Source: Selenomonadales bacterium (lineage in GTDB: Bacteria > Bacillota > Negativicutes > Sporomusales > UBA7701). Taken from it: DNA of 64,000 nt. Within the stretch, counting starts at the first letter, position 1. Every line of letters starts with the position of its first letter. Positions 30,988 to 36,928 of the stretch are shown in pieces. Made by a program: the position numbers and the translations under genes. The stretch is from positions 62,001 through 126,000 of the forward strand of contig JARKPR010000078.1 in the NCBI GenBank assembly GCA_029975165.1. The letters are read 5' to 3'. A model generated the notes under the pieces. It did not search any database. It was given only the letters and a program-made list of their open reading frames with translations, and was not told where the DNA came from.

Positions 30988-31200
30988 GGAATTCTCCGCT
31001 ATCCGCTATTGTTTCATTTGATATCCGCAATTATATCACCTGGAGCCTGCTCCAAGTCAAGAGCGGAGGCGAATTTTCCGCCGGGCGGCGCGAGGGGGGC
31101 GGAAAGGAAGGGGGCCGGCTGGCGGTGGGGCGGCGACCAGTGGTATAATTATACTATTTAGATCAACCTTGAAAATAACAGCGATAAGGGAAGGGCCGTT

Positions 31201-32004
31201 GTGGAAAAAGCGAAGCTGCTCGAGATGATAAGGAATAACCCCCAGGCCATCGCCTATGTAGATAGTCCTACGGACGAGATGAAGCTGCTGGCCGTGAAAA
31301 AGAACGGCCTGGCGTTGAAACATATCGACAAGCCGACCAGGGAGATGCAGGCGGCGGCCGTAGACAACAACGCCCGGGCGATCGAGTTTATCGACGACCC
31401 TACGGAAGAGATGATGATGAAGGCCGTGAACGGCGGCTGGATCAACCTGGAGCATATCAAGAACCCGACCGCCAGGGTGGTTGAAGCGGCGATAAATCAG
31501 GCCGGCTGGGCTATCCAGTATGTCGCTGAGCCCGGTGAGGAATGGCAATTGCTGGCGGTGAAAAAAAATTACGATTCGCTGAGGTTTATAAAGGAGCCTT
31601 GCGGCAGCGCGCAGGAAGCGGCCGTAAGGATAAGCTACGAGGCCTTGCGGTATATCAAGTCGCCCACGCCCGAGGCCGAGCTGATAGCGGTCAGGAATAA
31701 TTCGAGCGCGGTTACGCTTATAAATGATTTGGCTAAAGATAAAATATTGGCCTTTCTGAAAGTCAATATTTTCGTGATCAAATATATTGCCAAGGAGATA
31801 TCCCCGGATGAATTGGGACAGGTGCTGAAGGAAGCATTGGCAAGTGAAGAGGTCGAGGAAAAATATGTCCGGGACTTTTTGAATTGCGGCCTTATCGATA
31901 AGAACAGCGAGGTTTTTCCGCTGGATAAGCTGATGTTTATTTATAAGTACGGCAGCAAGAAAGCGAAAAGGGTCGCTGTGGACGAAAAGCTGAAGCTGCT
32001 ATAG
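31201..32004 (+). CDS. helical-repeat protein (DUF4116-like repeats)
   Basis: A 267-residue protein whose first 175 residues are about seven repeats of 22-24 residues, pattern N-x2-A(I/L)-x(Y/F)I-D-x-PT-x-EM-x3-AV. They resemble DUF4116-type repeats, which fold as stacked helices and bind proteins. The last 90 residues are helical without repeats. GTG start behind AAGGGAAGGG. It lies 12 bp before the AAA ATPase gene, so it is likely the substrate adaptor or regulated partner of the ATPase/VWA pair. Confidence 0.72.
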   Translation: MEKAKLLEMIRNNPQAIAYVDSPTDEMKLLAVKKNGLALKHIDKPTREMQAAAVDNNARAIEFIDDPTEEMMMKAVNGGWINLEHIKNPTARVVEAAINQAGWAIQYVAEPGEEWQLLAVKKNYDSLRFIKEPCGSAQEAAVRISYEALRYIKSPTPEAELIAVRNNSSAVTLINDLAKDKILAFLKVNIFVIKYIAKEISPDELGQVLKEALASEEVEEKYVRDFLNCGLIDKNSEVFPLDKLMFIYKYGSKKAKRVAVDEKLKLL

Positions 32005-32016
32005 GAGGACGATGCG

Positions 32017-33147
32017 ATGAATTATGTGGACACGCTGCAAGGTGTCGATTTGGTGCTGGCTACCGGCGAGGTGCCTTTGATCGTCGGGGAGAGCGGCATC
32101 GGCAAAACGGCTTTGGCCGAGGAGCTTGCCGGCAAAAATAATTGGAGCCTGATCGTCATTAACGGGAATCTCCTCAAGGAGGGGGAAATAGGCGGCCTGC
32201 CGACGATAGAGACTTATACGGCGATCGACGATAACGGCGACCGGGTCGAAAAGAAGACGACGATATATGCGGTGCATACCAAGCTGCGGGAAATCGACGC
32301 GGAGATAGCCAGGGGGAAAACGGTGCTTTTGTTCATCGACGAGATTAACCGCTGCGAGCATACGGTGCAGCAGGAGCTTATGAATTTGATTTTAAACCGG
32401 GAGATCAACGGCTATAAGCTGCATCAGGATGTGAAGATACTGGCGGCCATGAATCCTTCCAGCAAATACGGGGCGGATTTCGATTACCAGGTTGTGGATA
32501 TGGATGCGGCGCAGGAAAACAGGTTCGTGTGGTTGTATATGGAGCCCGATTATATCCAGTGGCTGGACTGGGCGGTGGACGCGGGCCTCGAGCAGAAGGT
32601 CGTCGAGTTTATCTCGACTTTCCCGGAATATCTGCATAGGATAAACGAGGACGATATACGGGCCACGCCGCGCAGCTACGAGAGGATTTCCGGCCTGTAT
32701 AAGATTTATAAGGAGCAGAGGGCTTCGATCCCCCGGGCGGTGTTTGTGAATCTTATCAGGGGCAATGTCGGCAGATTCATCGCCGAGGAGTTCGTCAGCT
32801 TCGTCGAGGCGGATTACCGGGCGCTGATCTCTTATGAGGAGGTTTTCGCCGGGGATTCTCTGCCTGAAGCGGTCGCAGAAAAAATAAAAAGCGAGAGCCA
32901 TACGAGGCTTTATCTGGCCGCCAAGAATATCCTGATAAATCTGGAGGCCAATATGAAGGATTATAATGCTGCGGCGGGTTTTTATATCGGCCGGCTTATC
33001 GAGTTTTTGCAAGTATATCCCGTGGATTTGATGATCGGCATCATGAAGGATATTAAGAACAGTTATCCCGGGGTATACAAGCAGGCCATCGAGAATGAGG
33101 CCTTTGTGGAAGCGTATTTCGCGGCTTACGGTTCGATAGGGTCGTGA
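32017..33147 (+). CDS. MoxR-like AAA ATPase
   Basis: A 376-residue ATPase. Walker A is GESGIGKT (24-31), Walker B is LLFIDEIN (104-111), and a sensor-1 segment AAMNPSSKYG follows near 145. The layout and the pairing with a VWA protein place it in the MoxR branch, which remodels partner proteins. The C-terminal 150 residues are helical and specific to this type. It is followed four bases later by the VWA gene, so the two are surely co-expressed. Confidence 0.9.
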   Translation: MNYVDTLQGVDLVLATGEVPLIVGESGIGKTALAEELAGKNNWSLIVINGNLLKEGEIGGLPTIETYTAIDDNGDRVEKKTTIYAVHTKLREIDAEIARGKTVLLFIDEINRCEHTVQQELMNLILNREINGYKLHQDVKILAAMNPSSKYGADFDYQVVDMDAAQENRFVWLYMEPDYIQWLDWAVDAGLEQKVVEFISTFPEYLHRINEDDIRATPRSYERISGLYKIYKEQRASIPRAVFVNLIRGNVGRFIAEEFVSFVEADYRALISYEEVFAGDSLPEAVAEKIKSESHTRLYLAAKNILINLEANMKDYNAAAGFYIGRLIEFLQVYPVDLMIGIMKDIKNSYPGVYKQAIENEAFVEAYFAAYGSIGS

Positions 33148-33151
33148 TGCT

Positions 33152-34558
33152 ATGGAAACGGGTTTCGACAGCCGGGCCAAAGAGCTTTATGAGCAGGCGC
33201 AAAGGATCGTCGGCACTTTTTACGCAGCCAGACATATCGACGACCAGGCTGAGATAAATATACCGCAAGCTTTTCGGGAAGAGTTTTTCCACCTGGTGGA
33301 CAAGGTCAATGTAAGCCTCATGGCGGACAAGGATAATTTCTACGGTTATTTTTTGCTGCAAATGGCACGGGAGATAGATTTTGCGGTAAGCAGCCCGACG
33401 GCCGTGAATTTCAAGGGCGCCCAGTATGTTATTTATTTTAATCCCCTGCTTTTTCTGACCCTCGATATCCGGCAAATGGCGAGCGCCGTCAAGCACGAGA
33501 TACTTCATATATTGTCCCTGCATCTGATAAGGGCGAAGGAATTGACGACCGGCTACAGCGCCTTGGCGGTCAATATGGCGATGGATATAGTGGTGAATGC
33601 GTATTTGGACAATCTGCCGCCGTATGCCGTTACCTTGGGCTGGGTAAATGCTAATTATGCTTTGCAGCTCCTGCCGTTCGAGCCGTTCGAGTATTATGCG
33701 GAGAAGCTGCAGACGGCCATGGATTTGCAGGCGGAGGACAAGGACGGCGCAGAGGTTGAGGGCAATGGGGAGGAAAGGATAGCGGCTGATTATGATCCGG
33801 CAAGAACCCATGACCTGTGGGCGGAGTCCGGCGATGTGGACGAAAAAACCCTCCGCGAGTTTACCGCGAAGGTTGTCGATAATGCGCAAAAGGGCGCTGT
33901 CCCCGCTTATTTGGCAAGCGTGATAGCGGCCCTGAAAAACAGCCGGGGTGAATTGCCGTGGAATTTGTATCTCCAGCGGCTGATGGGCGCGGTGGAAAGC
34001 GACCGCAAGAAGACTGTCGCCCGCAGAAGCCGGCGGCAGCCCGACAGGCTGGATTTGAGGGGCGAGCTCAGGAGCCATAAGGCCAAGGTGGTCGTGGCTC
34101 TCGATATGAGCGGCAGCATCAGCGACGAGGAGTTTTATCAGGCGATCAAGGAAGTGCTGGCGATAGTGAAAAATCACCGGCAGGAAATTACGGTCGTCGA
34201 GTGCGACAGCGAGATCAGGCGCGTGTATAAGGCCGGAGCGGTGAAGGATATCAAGGAGCGGCTCGCTATAAGGGGCGGCACGAGGTTCACCCCGGTTATC
34301 GAGTATGCCAATGCTAATAAGGTTGATCTGCTGGTGTATTTTACCGACGGCAAGGGCGAGGATCGACTGCTGTCGCGACCCAGGGGGTATAAAACTTTAT
34401 GGGTCATTTCCGGGCGCGGCGATAGGCTTTCGCTGCAAGAGGCTTACGGAGCGGTGAAAAAGCTCAGGGATGTCGAAATACAGGATGACGGATTAAAGAT
34501 GAGCGATATCAGGAGAGACGGCTATTCGATGAACGACCAGGAGAGAAGGCATATTTGA
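33152..34558 (+). CDS. DUF2201 metallopeptidase-like/VWA protein
   Basis: A 468-residue protein with two parts. The N-terminal peptidase-like domain has HEILH at 115-119 and NMAMDIVVN at 141-149, fitting a zinc site with a downstream aspartate. The C-terminal VWA domain begins VVVALDMSGSIS, with an intact MIDAS D318-x-S-x-S and a later FTDGKGED. The middle (190-240) is acidic and probably unfolded. It is the usual partner of MoxR-like ATPases. Whether the peptidase is active is unknown, but the metal residues are present. Confidence 0.88.
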   Translation: METGFDSRAKELYEQAQRIVGTFYAARHIDDQAEINIPQAFREEFFHLVDKVNVSLMADKDNFYGYFLLQMAREIDFAVSSPTAVNFKGAQYVIYFNPLLFLTLDIRQMASAVKHEILHILSLHLIRAKELTTGYSALAVNMAMDIVVNAYLDNLPPYAVTLGWVNANYALQLLPFEPFEYYAEKLQTAMDLQAEDKDGAEVEGNGEERIAADYDPARTHDLWAESGDVDEKTLREFTAKVVDNAQKGAVPAYLASVIAALKNSRGELPWNLYLQRLMGAVESDRKKTVARRSRRQPDRLDLRGELRSHKAKVVVALDMSGSISDEEFYQAIKEVLAIVKNHRQEITVVECDSEIRRVYKAGAVKDIKERLAIRGGTRFTPVIEYANANKVDLLVYFTDGKGEDRLLSRPRGYKTLWVISGRGDRLSLQEAYGAVKKLRDVEIQDDGLKMSDIRRDGYSMNDQERRHI

Positions 34559-34565
34559 CTGCCGC

Positions 34566-35243
34566 TCATTTGGACCACAACAGGTCGGTGGCCTTGAGGA
34601 CCCGGAAGCATTCGCAGTAGGTGCCGCCGCCGGTGGTTATGCCGCGAAAGCGGTTGAGGCTGCGCACCGCTTCGCCGTAATCCAGGTTGTGCAGTTGCGA
34701 GGCATGGAGCGCCAGCGCCCGGAGCTTGACATCGATGAAGGCGGTGATGTCTTCGATATAGCTGCAATCCTGCACCGGCGTCCCGACTTCGTAGCACAGG
34801 ATGGTGCCGACTCGCCACAGGTGTTGCCCGCAGACCGGGGCCCGCGGGCTGCCTGCCCAGCTGCAGGCTTCGACTACCAGCTCGTAGGTCTGGCGGTGGT
34901 CGCGATGTTTGTCGTCCCCGTGCGGGATGTAGATGATATCGGGCCGGAATTCCCGGAGCAGAGTCGTGATGCGGACGAGGTTGTCCCAGGTACAGTTGAG
35001 ATACCCGTCGAGGTTTTTAAAGAAGTGGACCGAGGAGATATGCAGAAGCTCGGCCGCCTGCCGCGCTTCCGCTTCCCTGATGGCGGCGATCTCGTCCGGC
35101 AGGTGGGCCAGGCTGCCGATATCCCCCGACGTCATGTATACGACCCCGACCGTATTGCCTTTGGCTATATGTTTCGCGATACTGCCGCCGCAGCCGATCA
35201 CGTCGTCGTCCGGATGGGGCGCGAAAACTAAAACATTGGCCAT
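34566..35243 (-). CDS. PIG-L (LmbE-like) deacetylase
   Basis: A 225-residue zinc deacetylase of N-acetyl sugars. The motif APHPDDDVIGCGG (zinc ligands H10, D13) and the later HGDDKHRDHRQTYE (H-x2-D-H) are intact. The family includes BshB of bacillithiol synthesis and LmbE. ATG after GAAGGAGG. It converges with the VWA cassette and starts 27 bp below a small membrane-protein gene. Likely substrate is a sugar conjugate, possibly the product of the glycosyltransferase upstream. Confidence 0.88.
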   Translation of the reverse strand: MANVLVFAPHPDDDVIGCGGSIAKHIAKGNTVGVVYMTSGDIGSLAHLPDEIAAIREAEARQAAELLHISSVHFFKNLDGYLNCTWDNLVRITTLLREFRPDIIYIPHGDDKHRDHRQTYELVVEACSWAGSPRAPVCGQHLWRVGTILCYEVGTPVQDCSYIEDITAFIDVKLRALALHASQLHNLDYGEAVRSLNRFRGITTGGGTYCECFRVLKATDLLWSK

Positions 35244-35270
35244 ATGTCCTCCTTCGCCGGGCCGCGGCGT

Positions 35271-35450
35271 TTACGCCAGAACAATTATGAGCGCGGCCGC
35301 GAAAAACAGAAAGATTTCCACAAAAAGGCCCAGACCAGCAGGAAGGGTGAATTGCAGCCCGGCGTCGATACCATAGCTGCTCCAGCAGACAGCCATGGTG
35401 AGCAGCAGCAAGTATAGCAGCAGCTTGAAAAGCCGTCTCCGCTGTCGCAT
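35271..35450 (-). CDS. small two-helix membrane protein
   Basis: A 59-residue protein starting at ATG 35450 after CGGAGGTGACG. After five charged residues it has two hydrophobic segments (LFKLLLYLLLLTMAVCWSSYGI and about 38-59), so it is probably inserted in the membrane as a hairpin. No family known. It sits between the GpgS-like and PIG-L genes in the same direction, probably in one transcript. Confidence 0.55.
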   Translation of the reverse strand: MRQRRRLFKLLLYLLLLTMAVCWSSYGIDAGLQFTLPAGLGLFVEIFLFFAAALIIVLA

Positions 35451-35500
35451 TATCGTCACCTCCGTTTTCGCGAACCGCCGGGAAGGATTGCTCCGGATAA

Positions 35501-36928
35501 TTAAAAGGCGCGCCAGATGGTGGCAAATTTCTTCGTGCCGATCTCGAACCGGCCATGGGCCGAATAAACCCTGCGCAGGACGTTTTGCCGGCTGTCCCCG
35601 TACAGATCGCCCATCTCCGCCAGTACCTGGATTATTTGAAAAGCCATTTCGCTGAGGCCCAGGACGTTTTTCGATTTATGTTTTACCTCGCCCAGGTTTA
35701 CCTGGCAGGTCGCCCACAGGCCCTCCCTTTCCACCGCCTGGATGAGCATGGCCATCTCTACGCCATAGTTCACCGGCACGCGCATTTTCATGAAGGCGTC
35801 GCGGTATACCGCTACCGTTCCCGCCAAGGGCTGAATGTAGCCGGCGAGCTGGGGCATGAAGGCATTTATCCACGGCCGGGCGAGGATCTCGGTCACCCGG
35901 CCGCCGCCGAGTTCGACCCCGGAGGCTTCCACGGTGATGGGGCGGGCGAAGTATCCCTTGGAAAATCTTATGGCCGGGTTTGACAGCATCGGCCCCAATA
36001 AGCCGTAGAAGAACCGCGGGGCAATGCTCGCGATGTCGGTATCCACCCAGGCGATAATGTCGGCGTCGGTCACAAACGCGCTCTTGAACATCGCCTCGCC
36101 TTTGCCGCGGTGGCTCCCCAGCTCGGGTCTTATATCGCGGTGGAGAAAAACGGGTATGCCGTAGGACCTGGCAACGTCTACGGTTCCGTCCGCCGACGCC
36201 GAGTCGATCAGGATGACCTCGTCGATTATGCCGGCTTTTTGTACTTCCAGGGCGGTTTTGATAACATTGCCCACCGTTCGCTCCTCGTTCAGGCTGGGCA
36301 GCAAGACGGCGATTTTTTTGCCGAGTTTGCGCTTGTAGTTTTTAAGAACGGCCCGCAGGGAAAAGTCGGCGGCGTCAAAGGTTCGCGCCCGGACCCAGGA
36401 GTATATCTCGTCTCCTTCGTCGATTTCGATCTCTTTCATGGGCCCCCGGACGATGGTGACGCTGCCGCCGTAGACCGCCCTGATTCTTCCGTAAAATGGC
36501 AAAAGTTCCGAATGGGCGAGCGGGGCCCCGAAGAACAGCATGGCGTAATCGGCGCCGATGCTGTGTACCAGTTCTTCTATGGTCGGGTCGCGCCGCCAAA
36601 TAATGGTGACGCTTTCAAACATCGCATTGGCCGGCGCGACGACTGTCGAGAGAAAAAGTTCTCCCAGCTCCGGAAGCCTCTCCTCCAGGTGGATGATGGT
36701 AATGTCGCGCACGCCGGACTTGGCCAGCAGTTCCAGGACCGCCCAAGCGTTTGTGCCGCCCCGCAGCACCGCCGCGACGGCACCGTCCCGCCAGCCGTCG
36801 GAGATGGCGAATATGCCGTCCTGGCCGATGTCTTCTTCTTCGTATTCGGCTATCGGTCTGATTTCGACCGCAGGATATTCTTCCCGGGCCGCGTCGATAA
36901 GCGGCCATTTTTCATTGTTCAGAGCCAT
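35501..36928 (-). CDS. glucosyl-3-phosphoglycerate synthase-like glycosyltransferase
   Basis: A 475-residue protein. Residues about 205-475 form a GT-A transferase close to GpgS: IAVLLPSLNEERTVGNVI, the DSASADGT loop, GSHRGKGEAMFKS, the metal motif WVDTDIASI, GGGRVTEILARPWINA and a C-terminal QVNLGEVKHKSK. GpgS joins glucose from a nucleotide sugar to 3-phosphoglycerate, the first step to the osmolyte glucosylglycerate. The first 200 residues are an extra domain of unknown role that looks like a nucleotide-binding alpha/beta fold. I see no GpgP phosphatase beside it. Confidence 0.78.
   Translation of the reverse strand: MALNNEKWPLIDAAREEYPAVEIRPIAEYEEEDIGQDGIFAISDGWRDGAVAAVLRGGTNAWAVLELLAKSGVRDITIIHLEERLPELGELFLSTVVAPANAMFESVTIIWRRDPTIEELVHSIGADYAMLFFGAPLAHSELLPFYGRIRAVYGGSVTIVRGPMKEIEIDEGDEIYSWVRARTFDAADFSLRAVLKNYKRKLGKKIAVLLPSLNEERTVGNVIKTALEVQKAGIIDEVILIDSASADGTVDVARSYGIPVFLHRDIRPELGSHRGKGEAMFKSAFVTDADIIAWVDTDIASIAPRFFYGLLGPMLSNPAIRFSKGYFARPITVEASGVELGGGRVTEILARPWINAFMPQLAGYIQPLAGTVAVYRDAFMKMRVPVNYGVEMAMLIQAVEREGLWATCQVNLGEVKHKSKNVLGLSEMAFQIIQVLAEMGDLYGDSRQNVLRRVYSAHGRFEIGTKKFATIWRAF

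What the first reader, a model, noticed from the sequence alone, without database searches (positions are those of the whole stretch)
31201..34558. Helical-repeat protein + MoxR ATPase + DUF2201 peptidase/VWA cassette
Three tightly linked genes. MoxR-VWA pairs work as protein-remodelling machines, and computational work has described ternary vWA-MoxR conflict systems with a third variable protein. Here the third protein is a DUF4116-like repeat array and the VWA protein carries a peptidase-like HEILH site. A defence, stress or maturation function with a proteolytic output is possible and, to my knowledge, not characterised.
Basis: partly seen in the sequence, partly recalled or inferred. Interest (0 to 1): 0.65.

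Follow-up and report, generated by a model that had tools for sequence, protein, structure and literature searches.

The report
Conserved three-gene ATP-driven protein-remodelling operon
Three neighbouring genes that recur together in relatives of Clostridium and Pelosinus appear to build one ATP-powered protein-reshaping machine with a repeat-protein arm; its built-in 'peptidase' site has been lost several times while the rest was kept, so cutting is probably not its essential job.

Summary
The trio is real at the stated coordinates: DUF4116 repeat protein, AAA_5/MoxR-like ATPase, DUF2201 metallopeptidase-VWA protein, 12 and 4 bases apart. It is a fixed operon of Negativicutes and Clostridia. 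The DUF4116 gene sits beside the ATPase in 80 of 80 listed genome loci; all 60 of 300 class-mates with an orthologous VWA gene have all three genes. The third protein is constant (265-271 aa in 79 of 79), not 'variable'. A promoter-proximal DNA element recurs across classes; in 14 trio-bearing genomes its 7 pattern matches all lie at trio operons (the window's genome gave none at that threshold). ATPase and MIDAS residues are intact in every row read, but HExxH is degenerate in 19 of 122 distinct proteins, in at least five changes on a quick tree. Peptidase activity is thus dispensable in some lineages. Defence gets no positive support. Best reading: a dedicated remodelling machine, like NorQ/NorD or RavA/ViaA, with the DUF4116 solenoid as client receptor; client unknown. 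Outside the orthologues, the closest pairs seen are phage pairs (AR9 gp028/gp029), also uncharacterised. New variant of a known kind.

The parts
31140..31175 (+). Promoter-proximal conserved element: extended -10 (TG-N-TATAAT) followed by a conserved block just downstream, near the expected transcription start
   Evidence: 28 of 33 specified positions against null maximum 24 in 1580 Markov shuffles; the seed was drawn from the same data. Single site in the window. In 14 genomes the 28-base pattern (up to 3 mismatches) gave 7 sites, all at trio operons, none in the window's own genome.
31201..32004 (+). DUF4116 repeat protein, 267 aa, GTG start: alpha-solenoid of 22-residue repeats plus C-terminal cap
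   Evidence: Pfam DUF4116 42 bits; AlphaFold mean pLDDT 96.4, helix pairs every 22 residues; 265-271 aa in 79 of 79 full-length orthologues among L031-L110
32017..33147 (+). AAA_5 (MoxR-like) ATPase, 376 aa
   Evidence: Pfam AAA_5 36.9 bits; Walker A/B, sensor 1, arginine finger and sensor 2 residues intact in 111 of 111 rows, some of them the same genome twice
32086..32109 (+). Walker A GESGIGKT (residues 24-31); Walker B D108/E109 lies at 32338-32343
   Evidence: sequence; conservation
33152..34558 (+). DUF2201 protein, 468 aa: N-terminal zincin-like metallopeptidase domain plus C-terminal VWA domain
   Evidence: Pfam DUF2201_N and DUF2201; VWA fold by structure comparison, Z about 12
33494..33523 (+). 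HEILHILSLH, residues 115-124 (HExxHxxxxH putative zinc site); degenerate in 19 of 122 distinct proteins
34103..34117 (+). MIDAS DxSxS (residues 318-322); T377 and D399 complete it
   Evidence: 122 of 122 distinct proteins intact

Best explanation
The operon encodes one dedicated protein-remodelling machine. SHOWN by sequence: a conserved three-gene unit; intact ATPase and MIDAS sites; a repeat protein of fixed length; repeated loss of the peptidase motif. INFERRED: the ATPase forms a hexameric ring; the VWA protein docks on the ring and transmits ATP-driven force to a client through its MIDAS metal site, as worked out for NorQ/NorD; the DUF4116 solenoid is the client receptor or adaptor and works with the VWA protein. 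The zincin-like domain is a structural or peptide-binding module that may trim a client in most lineages but is not essential everywhere. The client is probably a conserved cellular protein complex of these Firmicutes; it is not identified.
For: Trio linkage: rep and ATPase side by side in 80 of 80 listed contigs, VWA at least in part in 78 of 80, the other two contigs ending first; all 60 class-mates with an orthologous VWA gene (E <= 2e-65; 60 of 300 sampled) have all three genes, though 30 of the stretches read hold only part of the repeat gene; in the phylum sample 9 of 398 genomes (own included) carry the repeat protein and 9 of 9 have the ATPase beside it. ATPase residues intact in 111 of 111 rows and MIDAS in 122 of 122 distinct proteins, but HE of HExxH lost in 19 of 122, at least five changes on a quick tree, with open frames. 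Constant repeat length. In one genome a second copy keeps only rep + VWA, pointing to a rep-VWA partnership. ATPase tree broadly follows class. NorQ/NorD mechanism: PMC9976466 (passages), PMC13036017 (abstract and section list). Giant-virus DUF4116 proteins that match the model include two titled F-box proteins, which fits a receptor role.
Against: No client, no conserved extra neighbour and no expression or biochemical data. Classical MoxR model AAA_3 not reached; the ATPase profile finds only short Clp/VCP matches among solved structures. VWA model confidence is moderate (pLDDT 72.5), so the ring-docking 'finger' could not be checked. 103 of 122 proteins keep HExxHxxxxH, so catalysis may be under selection in most lineages. 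Presence is patchy, which fits a dispensable function. The F-box clue is a title-level lead.
Confidence: 0.55

Rival explanations
1. ATP-dependent protease: the DUF4116 protein delivers a substrate, the ring unfolds it and the zincin domain cuts it; proteolysis is the output.
For: HExxHxxxxH kept in 103 of 122 distinct proteins; phage relative AR9 gp029 also has it; adaptor + AAA + peptidase in one operon.
Against: In genus g47, 13 of the 14 sampled carriers have R at H115 (the fourteenth, G174, keeps H), and six other proteins have Q, D or QQ at H115/E116, with open frames for all three genes where the stretch allows. At least five changes on the tree.
Confidence: 0.2
2. Enzyme maturation factor: the trio opens one specific (metallo)enzyme for cofactor insertion or reactivation, as NorQ/NorD, CbbQ/CbbO and CoxD/CoxE do.
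For: Known MoxR/VWA pairs often do this (PMC7159879 passages; PMC9976466 passages; RavA/ViaA and CbbQ papers in the listing). ATPase tree broadly follows class. The 80 listed loci carry titles of Clostridia, Negativicutes or unclassified Bacillota, mostly anaerobes (recalled).
Against: Such factors often sit beside their client (recalled); here no neighbour is conserved: besides the trio no cluster is in more than 15 of 98 loci, and among 134 flanking proteins no Pfam family matches more than 8.
Confidence: 0.25
3. Phage-defence or conflict system, as the first reader suggested by analogy with the MoxR-vWA ternary systems.
For: Patchy presence: VWA orthologue in 60 of 300 class-mates, 1 of 5 in its own genus. 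Absent beside the PIG-L gene of genus-mate G087. Homologous pairs in phages. A few PADLOC matches among the neighbours.
Against: No PADLOC model beyond weak matches to the ATPase, none to the other two proteins. PADLOC matches among 134 neighbours are scattered: mad2 in 8 (probably generic methyltransferases), the rest in 1-2 each. No fused effector in 64 full-length VWA frames of 440-509 aa, constant repeat number, ATPase tree that broadly follows class.
Confidence: 0.1

Closest known systems
Phage AAA ATPase + metallopeptidase-vWA pair (Bacillus phage AR9 gp028/gp029; N4 gp24/gp25; jumbo-phage group 2.2 pair, PMC7824862)
   Same: AR9 pair is collinear over nearly full length: ATPase 31% over 361 columns, VWA 33% over 394, E about 1e-47; same gene order, HExxHxxxxH and MIDAS.
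   Different: No DUF4116 match in AR9, Machias or Pollock. The published proposal for jumbo phages is virion assembly (PMC7824862 passages), while AR9's pair follows an annotated early promoter and N4 gp24/25 are middle transcripts (PMC4193335 passages). No function shown in what I read.
NorQ/NorD, RavA/ViaA, CbbQ/CbbO (MoxR AAA+/VWA remodellers)
   Same: ATPase plus MIDAS VWA partner in one operon; AAA+ and MIDAS residue sets.
   Different: N-terminal zincin domain, a dedicated DUF4116 third protein, no conserved neighbour as client; not close in sequence.
Other bacterial AAA + DUF2201-type pairs (Synechocystis plasmid, Arcobacter plasmid; distant pairs in L141, L191, L192)
   Same: AAA ATPase with a VWA-like partner; 24-27% identity of the ATPase.
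   Different: Synechocystis has the two genes alone, Arcobacter a different 330-aa protein between them; none of L141, L190, L191, L192 has a DUF4116 match.
MoxR-vWA ternary conflict systems (VMAP, iSTAND, FtsH, beta-propeller; PMC7159879, passages read)
   Same: Three-gene logic; the paper also reports many catalytically inactive peptidase domains on the vWA component.
   Different: Third protein is none of the four kinds; no effector fused to the vWA protein; constant rather than diversifying. DUF2201 is not in that text; DUF4116 is in only two other papers.
DUF4116 repeat proteins of giant viruses and jumbo phages
   Same: Same solenoid: best BFVD match E 2.4e-8; tblastn 38% to Atu_ph07 and 35% to SCTP-2.
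   Different: There they are multigene or variable-length families (31 matches in SCTP-2), not a single fixed operon gene.

Membership tests
MoxR-like AAA+ ATPase | Walker A/B, sensor 1, arginine finger, sensor 2 | tested here: met
   111 of 111 aligned rows, some the same genome twice; residue roles assigned from recall
MoxR-like AAA+ ATPase | match to the classical MoxR model AAA_3 (PF07726) | tested here: not met
   18.7 bits, cut-off 27; AAA_5 is the best model, 36.9 of 22. Hence 'MoxR-like', not filed as classical MoxR
MoxR-like AAA+ ATPase | helix-2 insert and hexameric ring | not testable with these tools
   no structure of the ATPase predicted
MoxR-like AAA+ ATPase | operon partner with a VWA domain | tested here: met
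   78 of 80 loci at least in part, the other two truncated by contig ends
DUF2201 metallopeptidase-VWA | PF09967 and PF13203 over cut-off | tested here: met
   64.3 and 37.9 bits
DUF2201 metallopeptidase-VWA | HExxH site | tested here: met
   met in the window; lost in 19 of 122 distinct orthologues
DUF2201 metallopeptidase-VWA | peptidase activity | not testable with these tools
   needs biochemistry
MoxR-vWA ternary conflict systems | third protein is VMAP, iSTAND, FtsH or beta-propeller | tested here: not met
   Pfam DUF4116, predicted helical solenoid with a small cap
MoxR-vWA ternary conflict systems | variable effector domains fused to the vWA protein | tested here: not met
   440-509 aa in 64 full-length frames among L031-L110; VWA is the C-terminal domain. 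Frames in family f30 are open to 549-590 aa, extra length mostly N-terminal, not scanned for domains
MoxR-vWA ternary conflict systems | bias to multicellular prokaryotes | not tested
   -
Known anti-phage defence system | PADLOC model match over the protein | tested here: not met
   only weak short matches to the ATPase (best E 0.00055); none to the other two at E <= 1
Phage ATPase + metallopeptidase-vWA pair | collinear two-gene pair with both domains | tested here: met

The most novel reading that the evidence does not exclude
A further class of MoxR-vWA ternary machine: a fixed 22-residue-repeat solenoid acts as dedicated client receptor for an ATPase/VWA remodeller whose zincin domain has become a pseudo-peptidase several times. 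It would be a broadly vertical cellular function of anaerobic Firmicutes, controlled by its own conserved operon-specific element, and related to the functionally unknown N4 gp24/gp25 pair.
Probability: 0.45. Interest if true: 0.65.

Novelty: new variant of a known kind. Interest (0 to 1): 0.5.

Why it matters
MoxR/VWA remodellers are widespread but few have known clients (recalled). This one comes with a constant client-receptor candidate, so a pull-down could reveal the client directly. Natural peptidase-dead relatives give a ready-made test of whether the zincin domain is an enzyme or a scaffold. The result would bear on homologous pairs in N4-like and jumbo phages for which I found no shown function.

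Tried and rejected
Variable third component: rejected, one orthologue of constant length. Hypervariable sensor: rejected, 265-271 aa in 79 of 79. Defence island: 134 flanking proteins scanned, no concentration, though single ShosA, PsyrA, AbiGi, JetC and Leo matches occur. Conserved fourth gene: none; besides the trio the largest cluster covers 15 of 98 loci. Sporulation link: not tested. A phage counterpart of the repeat protein next to the AR9 pair: AR9 gp031 gave probability 0.5%; gp030 was read but not compared. Rfam element upstream: none at gathering score. Close relatives in viral contigs: none for the ATPase or the repeat protein. Clean empty site: not obtained. Genus-mate G087 keeps the PIG-L and glycosyltransferase genes without the trio, but the gene on the other flank (metallo-beta-lactamase fold) has only weak matches there.

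Fold searches: no solved structure matched the repeat protein at E <= 0.001. The zincin domain was barely tested because the VWA domain filled the list. Neither absence shows a new fold. The promoter scan found no consensus -35/-10 pair on the + strand at the element; it lists one on the - strand at 31175-31148.

Full report
OBSERVATION. Pfam assigns DUF4116 to the first, AAA_5 to the second, and DUF2201_N (putative metallopeptidase) plus DUF2201 (VWA-like) to the third, each over its cut-off. The classical MoxR model AAA_3 stays below its cut-off, so 'MoxR' is used here in the wider sense of MoxR-like. NCBIfam has no match for proteins 1 and 3; for protein 2 the 25 matches shown of 54 are all below their cut-offs. 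PHROGs hold relatives of all three.

DISTRIBUTION. The VWA gene is single copy in its own genome. A scan of one genome per GTDB species with the ATPase found 115 relatives, of which the best 80 were kept: Pelosinus, Desulfosporosinus, Gracilibacter, Romboutsia, Clostridioides, Clostridium, Megasphaera and others, 63-80% identical. In these 80 contigs the DUF4116 gene lies directly upstream of the ATPase in 80 of 80 (in L104 cut by the contig end). At least part of the VWA gene follows in 78 of 80; the other two contigs end first. I read a stretch around the orthologue in all 60, and all 60 show all three genes, 30 of them with only part of the repeat gene inside the stretch. The four distant genomes show no DUF4116 match beside their AAA gene. 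In a phylum-wide sample, 9 of 398 genomes (own included) carry the repeat protein and 9 of 9 have the ATPase next to it. So the third protein is not variable; it is a fixed member.

NOT PART OF ANYTHING LARGER. Across 98 loci the only broadly shared gene clusters are the trio; the next covers 15 loci (the window's own repeat gene was masked there by a longer antisense frame). Among 134 proteins flanking the L031-L110 trios (73 upstream, 61 downstream) no Pfam family matches more than 8 and PADLOC matches are scattered. The ATPase tree separates Clostridia from Negativicutes with one change of label (80 rows, 5 of them in no group and not counted, quick method, support 93); the window's own row is one of the five and falls weakly beside Desulfosporosinus (support 84), so one transfer is possible. 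Presence is patchy: in the window's own genus 1 of 5 genomes has an orthologue, and genus-mate G087 keeps the neighbouring PIG-L and glycosyltransferase genes without the trio.

ANATOMY. The repeat protein is predicted with high confidence (pLDDT 96.4) as an alpha-solenoid of helix pairs repeating every 22 residues, closed by a C-terminal cap; DUF4116 had been modelled as an alpha-solenoid before (PMC8078820, passages). Its length is 265-271 aa in 79 of 79 full-length orthologues among L031-L110. No solved structure matched at E <= 0.001. Predicted viral proteins did: DUF4116 proteins of giant viruses, two titled F-box proteins, and one of Agrobacterium phage Atu_ph07. The VWA model is of moderate confidence (pLDDT 72.5); its residues about 309-441 match VWA domains at Z about 12.

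THE KEY RESULT. I aligned 122 distinct VWA proteins (window included; rows with partial VWA were dropped: L040, L058, L082, L085, L086; three of 151 loci had no match at E <= 1e-20). HExxHxxxxH is intact in 103. It is degenerate in 19: R at H115 in 13, Q at H115 in 2, D at E116 in 2, Q at E116 in 1, QQ in 1. The 13 belong to one genus, code g47, in which 14 sampled genomes carry the orthologue; the fourteenth, G174, keeps H. The later histidines H119 and H124 and the MIDAS set D318/S320/S322/T377/D399 are intact in 122 of 122. In the ATPase alignment GKT, DE, N146, R169 and R219 are intact in 111 of 111 rows, some of which are the same genome twice; the additional orthologue loci keep them too, with GKS for GKT in two. 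The degenerate loci have open frames for all three genes where the stretch allows. One search reported a stop inside the match in five rows (G096, G159, G065, G180, G183); only one best match held a stop, at residue 464, the natural end. On a 122-row tree (quick method, long branches warned of, L169 and L189 among them) the intact/degenerate label needs at least five changes. The peptidase site is thus repeatedly dispensable, the ATP- and metal-dependent core is not.

A SECOND CLUE. Genome G080 has one complete trio and a second copy in which the repeat gene is followed directly by the VWA gene with no ATPase between them or elsewhere in the 4-kb stretch. If both copies work, the repeat protein partners the VWA protein and the ATPase can be shared.

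CIS ELEMENT. Upstream of the repeat gene an extended -10 followed by a conserved block recurs across Negativicutes, Desulfosporosinus and Peptostreptococcaceae. Scored against 33 specified positions, 28 of 79 upstream regions reach 25 or more against a maximum of 24 in 1580 first-order Markov shuffles; the window scores 28. The seed was drawn from these sequences and some rows are close relatives, so this is a description rather than an independent test; the other 51 of 79 lie at 24 or below, within the shuffled range. Searched with up to three mismatches in 14 trio-bearing genomes, the 28-base pattern occurs 7 times in 6 genomes: six sites lie, by their coordinates, just upstream of the known trios, and the seventh upstream of a second trio copy in G135. 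Eight genomes, the window's own included, gave no hit at that threshold. The element looks operon-specific; its regulator is unknown. On the + strand of the window the consensus scanner found no -35/-10 pair there. No Rfam family matches.

PHAGE AND OTHER RELATIVES. tblastn finds the VWA protein in 159 phage records. The top-ranked are Bacillus phages PBS1 and AR9; AR9 has the same two genes in order, collinear over nearly full length, with the same motifs. AR9 gp029 and the PHROG that our protein matches best are labelled 'HNH endonuclease', which the domain content noted in the record itself contradicts. N4-like phages carry the pair as gp24/gp25, middle transcripts of unknown function (PMC4193335 and PMC2784036, passages). 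A published proposal for the jumbo-phage pair is virion assembly with peptidolytic processing (PMC7824862, passages). DUF4116 is absent from AR9, Machias and Pollock but present in SCTP-2 and Atu_ph07, which also have distant VWA matches; none is adjacent, the nearest being about 6 kb away in Atu_ph07. On plasmids the ATPase has only distant matches in 45 records: Synechocystis has the ATPase and a VWA-like gene alone, Arcobacter a different protein between them.

MECHANISM. For NorQ/NorD, published work describes a hexameric NorQ ring with one NorD, a VWA 'finger' in the pore, and a MIDAS that is needed for an active client but not for binding NorQ (PMC9976466, passages; PMC13036017, abstract and section list). 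I infer the same logic here, with the DUF4116 solenoid as an added receptor. The ring, the docking, the receptor role and the client are all inferred. The alternative, ATP-dependent proteolysis, remains possible in the 103 proteins with an intact site.

COMPARISON WITH THE TERNARY CONFLICT SYSTEMS. Kaur et al. (PMC7159879, passages) name four kinds by their third protein; this is none of them, and no fused effector was seen, so it is not filed as a member. It may still work on the same chaperone/co-chaperone principle. That paper also notes that many peptidase domains on the vWA component are inactive, a parallel to the losses seen here.

LITERATURE LIMITS. Searches for DUF4116 (2 papers), DUF2201 (4), family accessions and names (3), MoxR with VWA and C. 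difficile (0), DUF4116 with MoxR (0) and MoxR/vWA/metallopeptidase/chaperone (4) gave no study of this operon, judged from listings and the passages cited; the library holds open-licence papers only. The one C. difficile paper naming a DUF4116 protein concerns an amyloid-like motif (PMC13119156, passages). A Delftia phage paper lists an AAA gene and a DUF2201_N/VWA gene (PMC5735904, one passage).

VERDICT. A real, conserved three-gene machine for which I found no characterisation; ordinary in its chaperone logic, new in its fixed DUF4116 partner, its apparently operon-specific element and its repeatedly lost peptidase site.

Noticed in passing
PHROG phrog_1314; AR9 gp029 (L142:5899-7323): Labelled 'HNH endonuclease' although the AR9 record itself notes metallopeptidase and VWA-like domains; the same name stands on several Pseudomonas and Klebsiella phage records that match our VWA protein.
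   Followed up: partly
L176 (G080:C2:1313000-1317000): Second copy in this genome has the repeat gene directly followed by the VWA gene, without an ATPase between them.
   Followed up: partly
L161 (G135:C151): A second trio copy in genome G135 (estimated contamination 9%) with the same upstream element.
   Followed up: no
L058:9135-10534 and L046:2372-3769: VWA gene split over three frames in Clostridium celatum DSM 1785, and a VWA frame that is not one open frame in a Terrisporobacter MAG.
   Followed up: no
L145 and record MF360958.1 (Salicola phage SCTP-2): 31 DUF4116 matches spread over one phage genome that also has a distant DUF2201-type VWA match.
   Followed up: no
window 34566-36928, - strand: PIG-L deacetylase and family-2 glycosyltransferase genes next to the trio, kept together in genus-mate G087 without the trio.
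   Followed up: partly
L138, L139, L178-L188: In 10 of these 13 REHH loci the repeat protein also departs at D261 or E262 (G, S or Q), positions conserved in 81 of 81 rows; a possible coupled change.
   Followed up: no
L162:2862-6106 (Arcobacter plasmid): ATPase and VWA-like gene with an unrelated-looking 330-aa protein between them, perhaps another three-gene variant.
   Followed up: no
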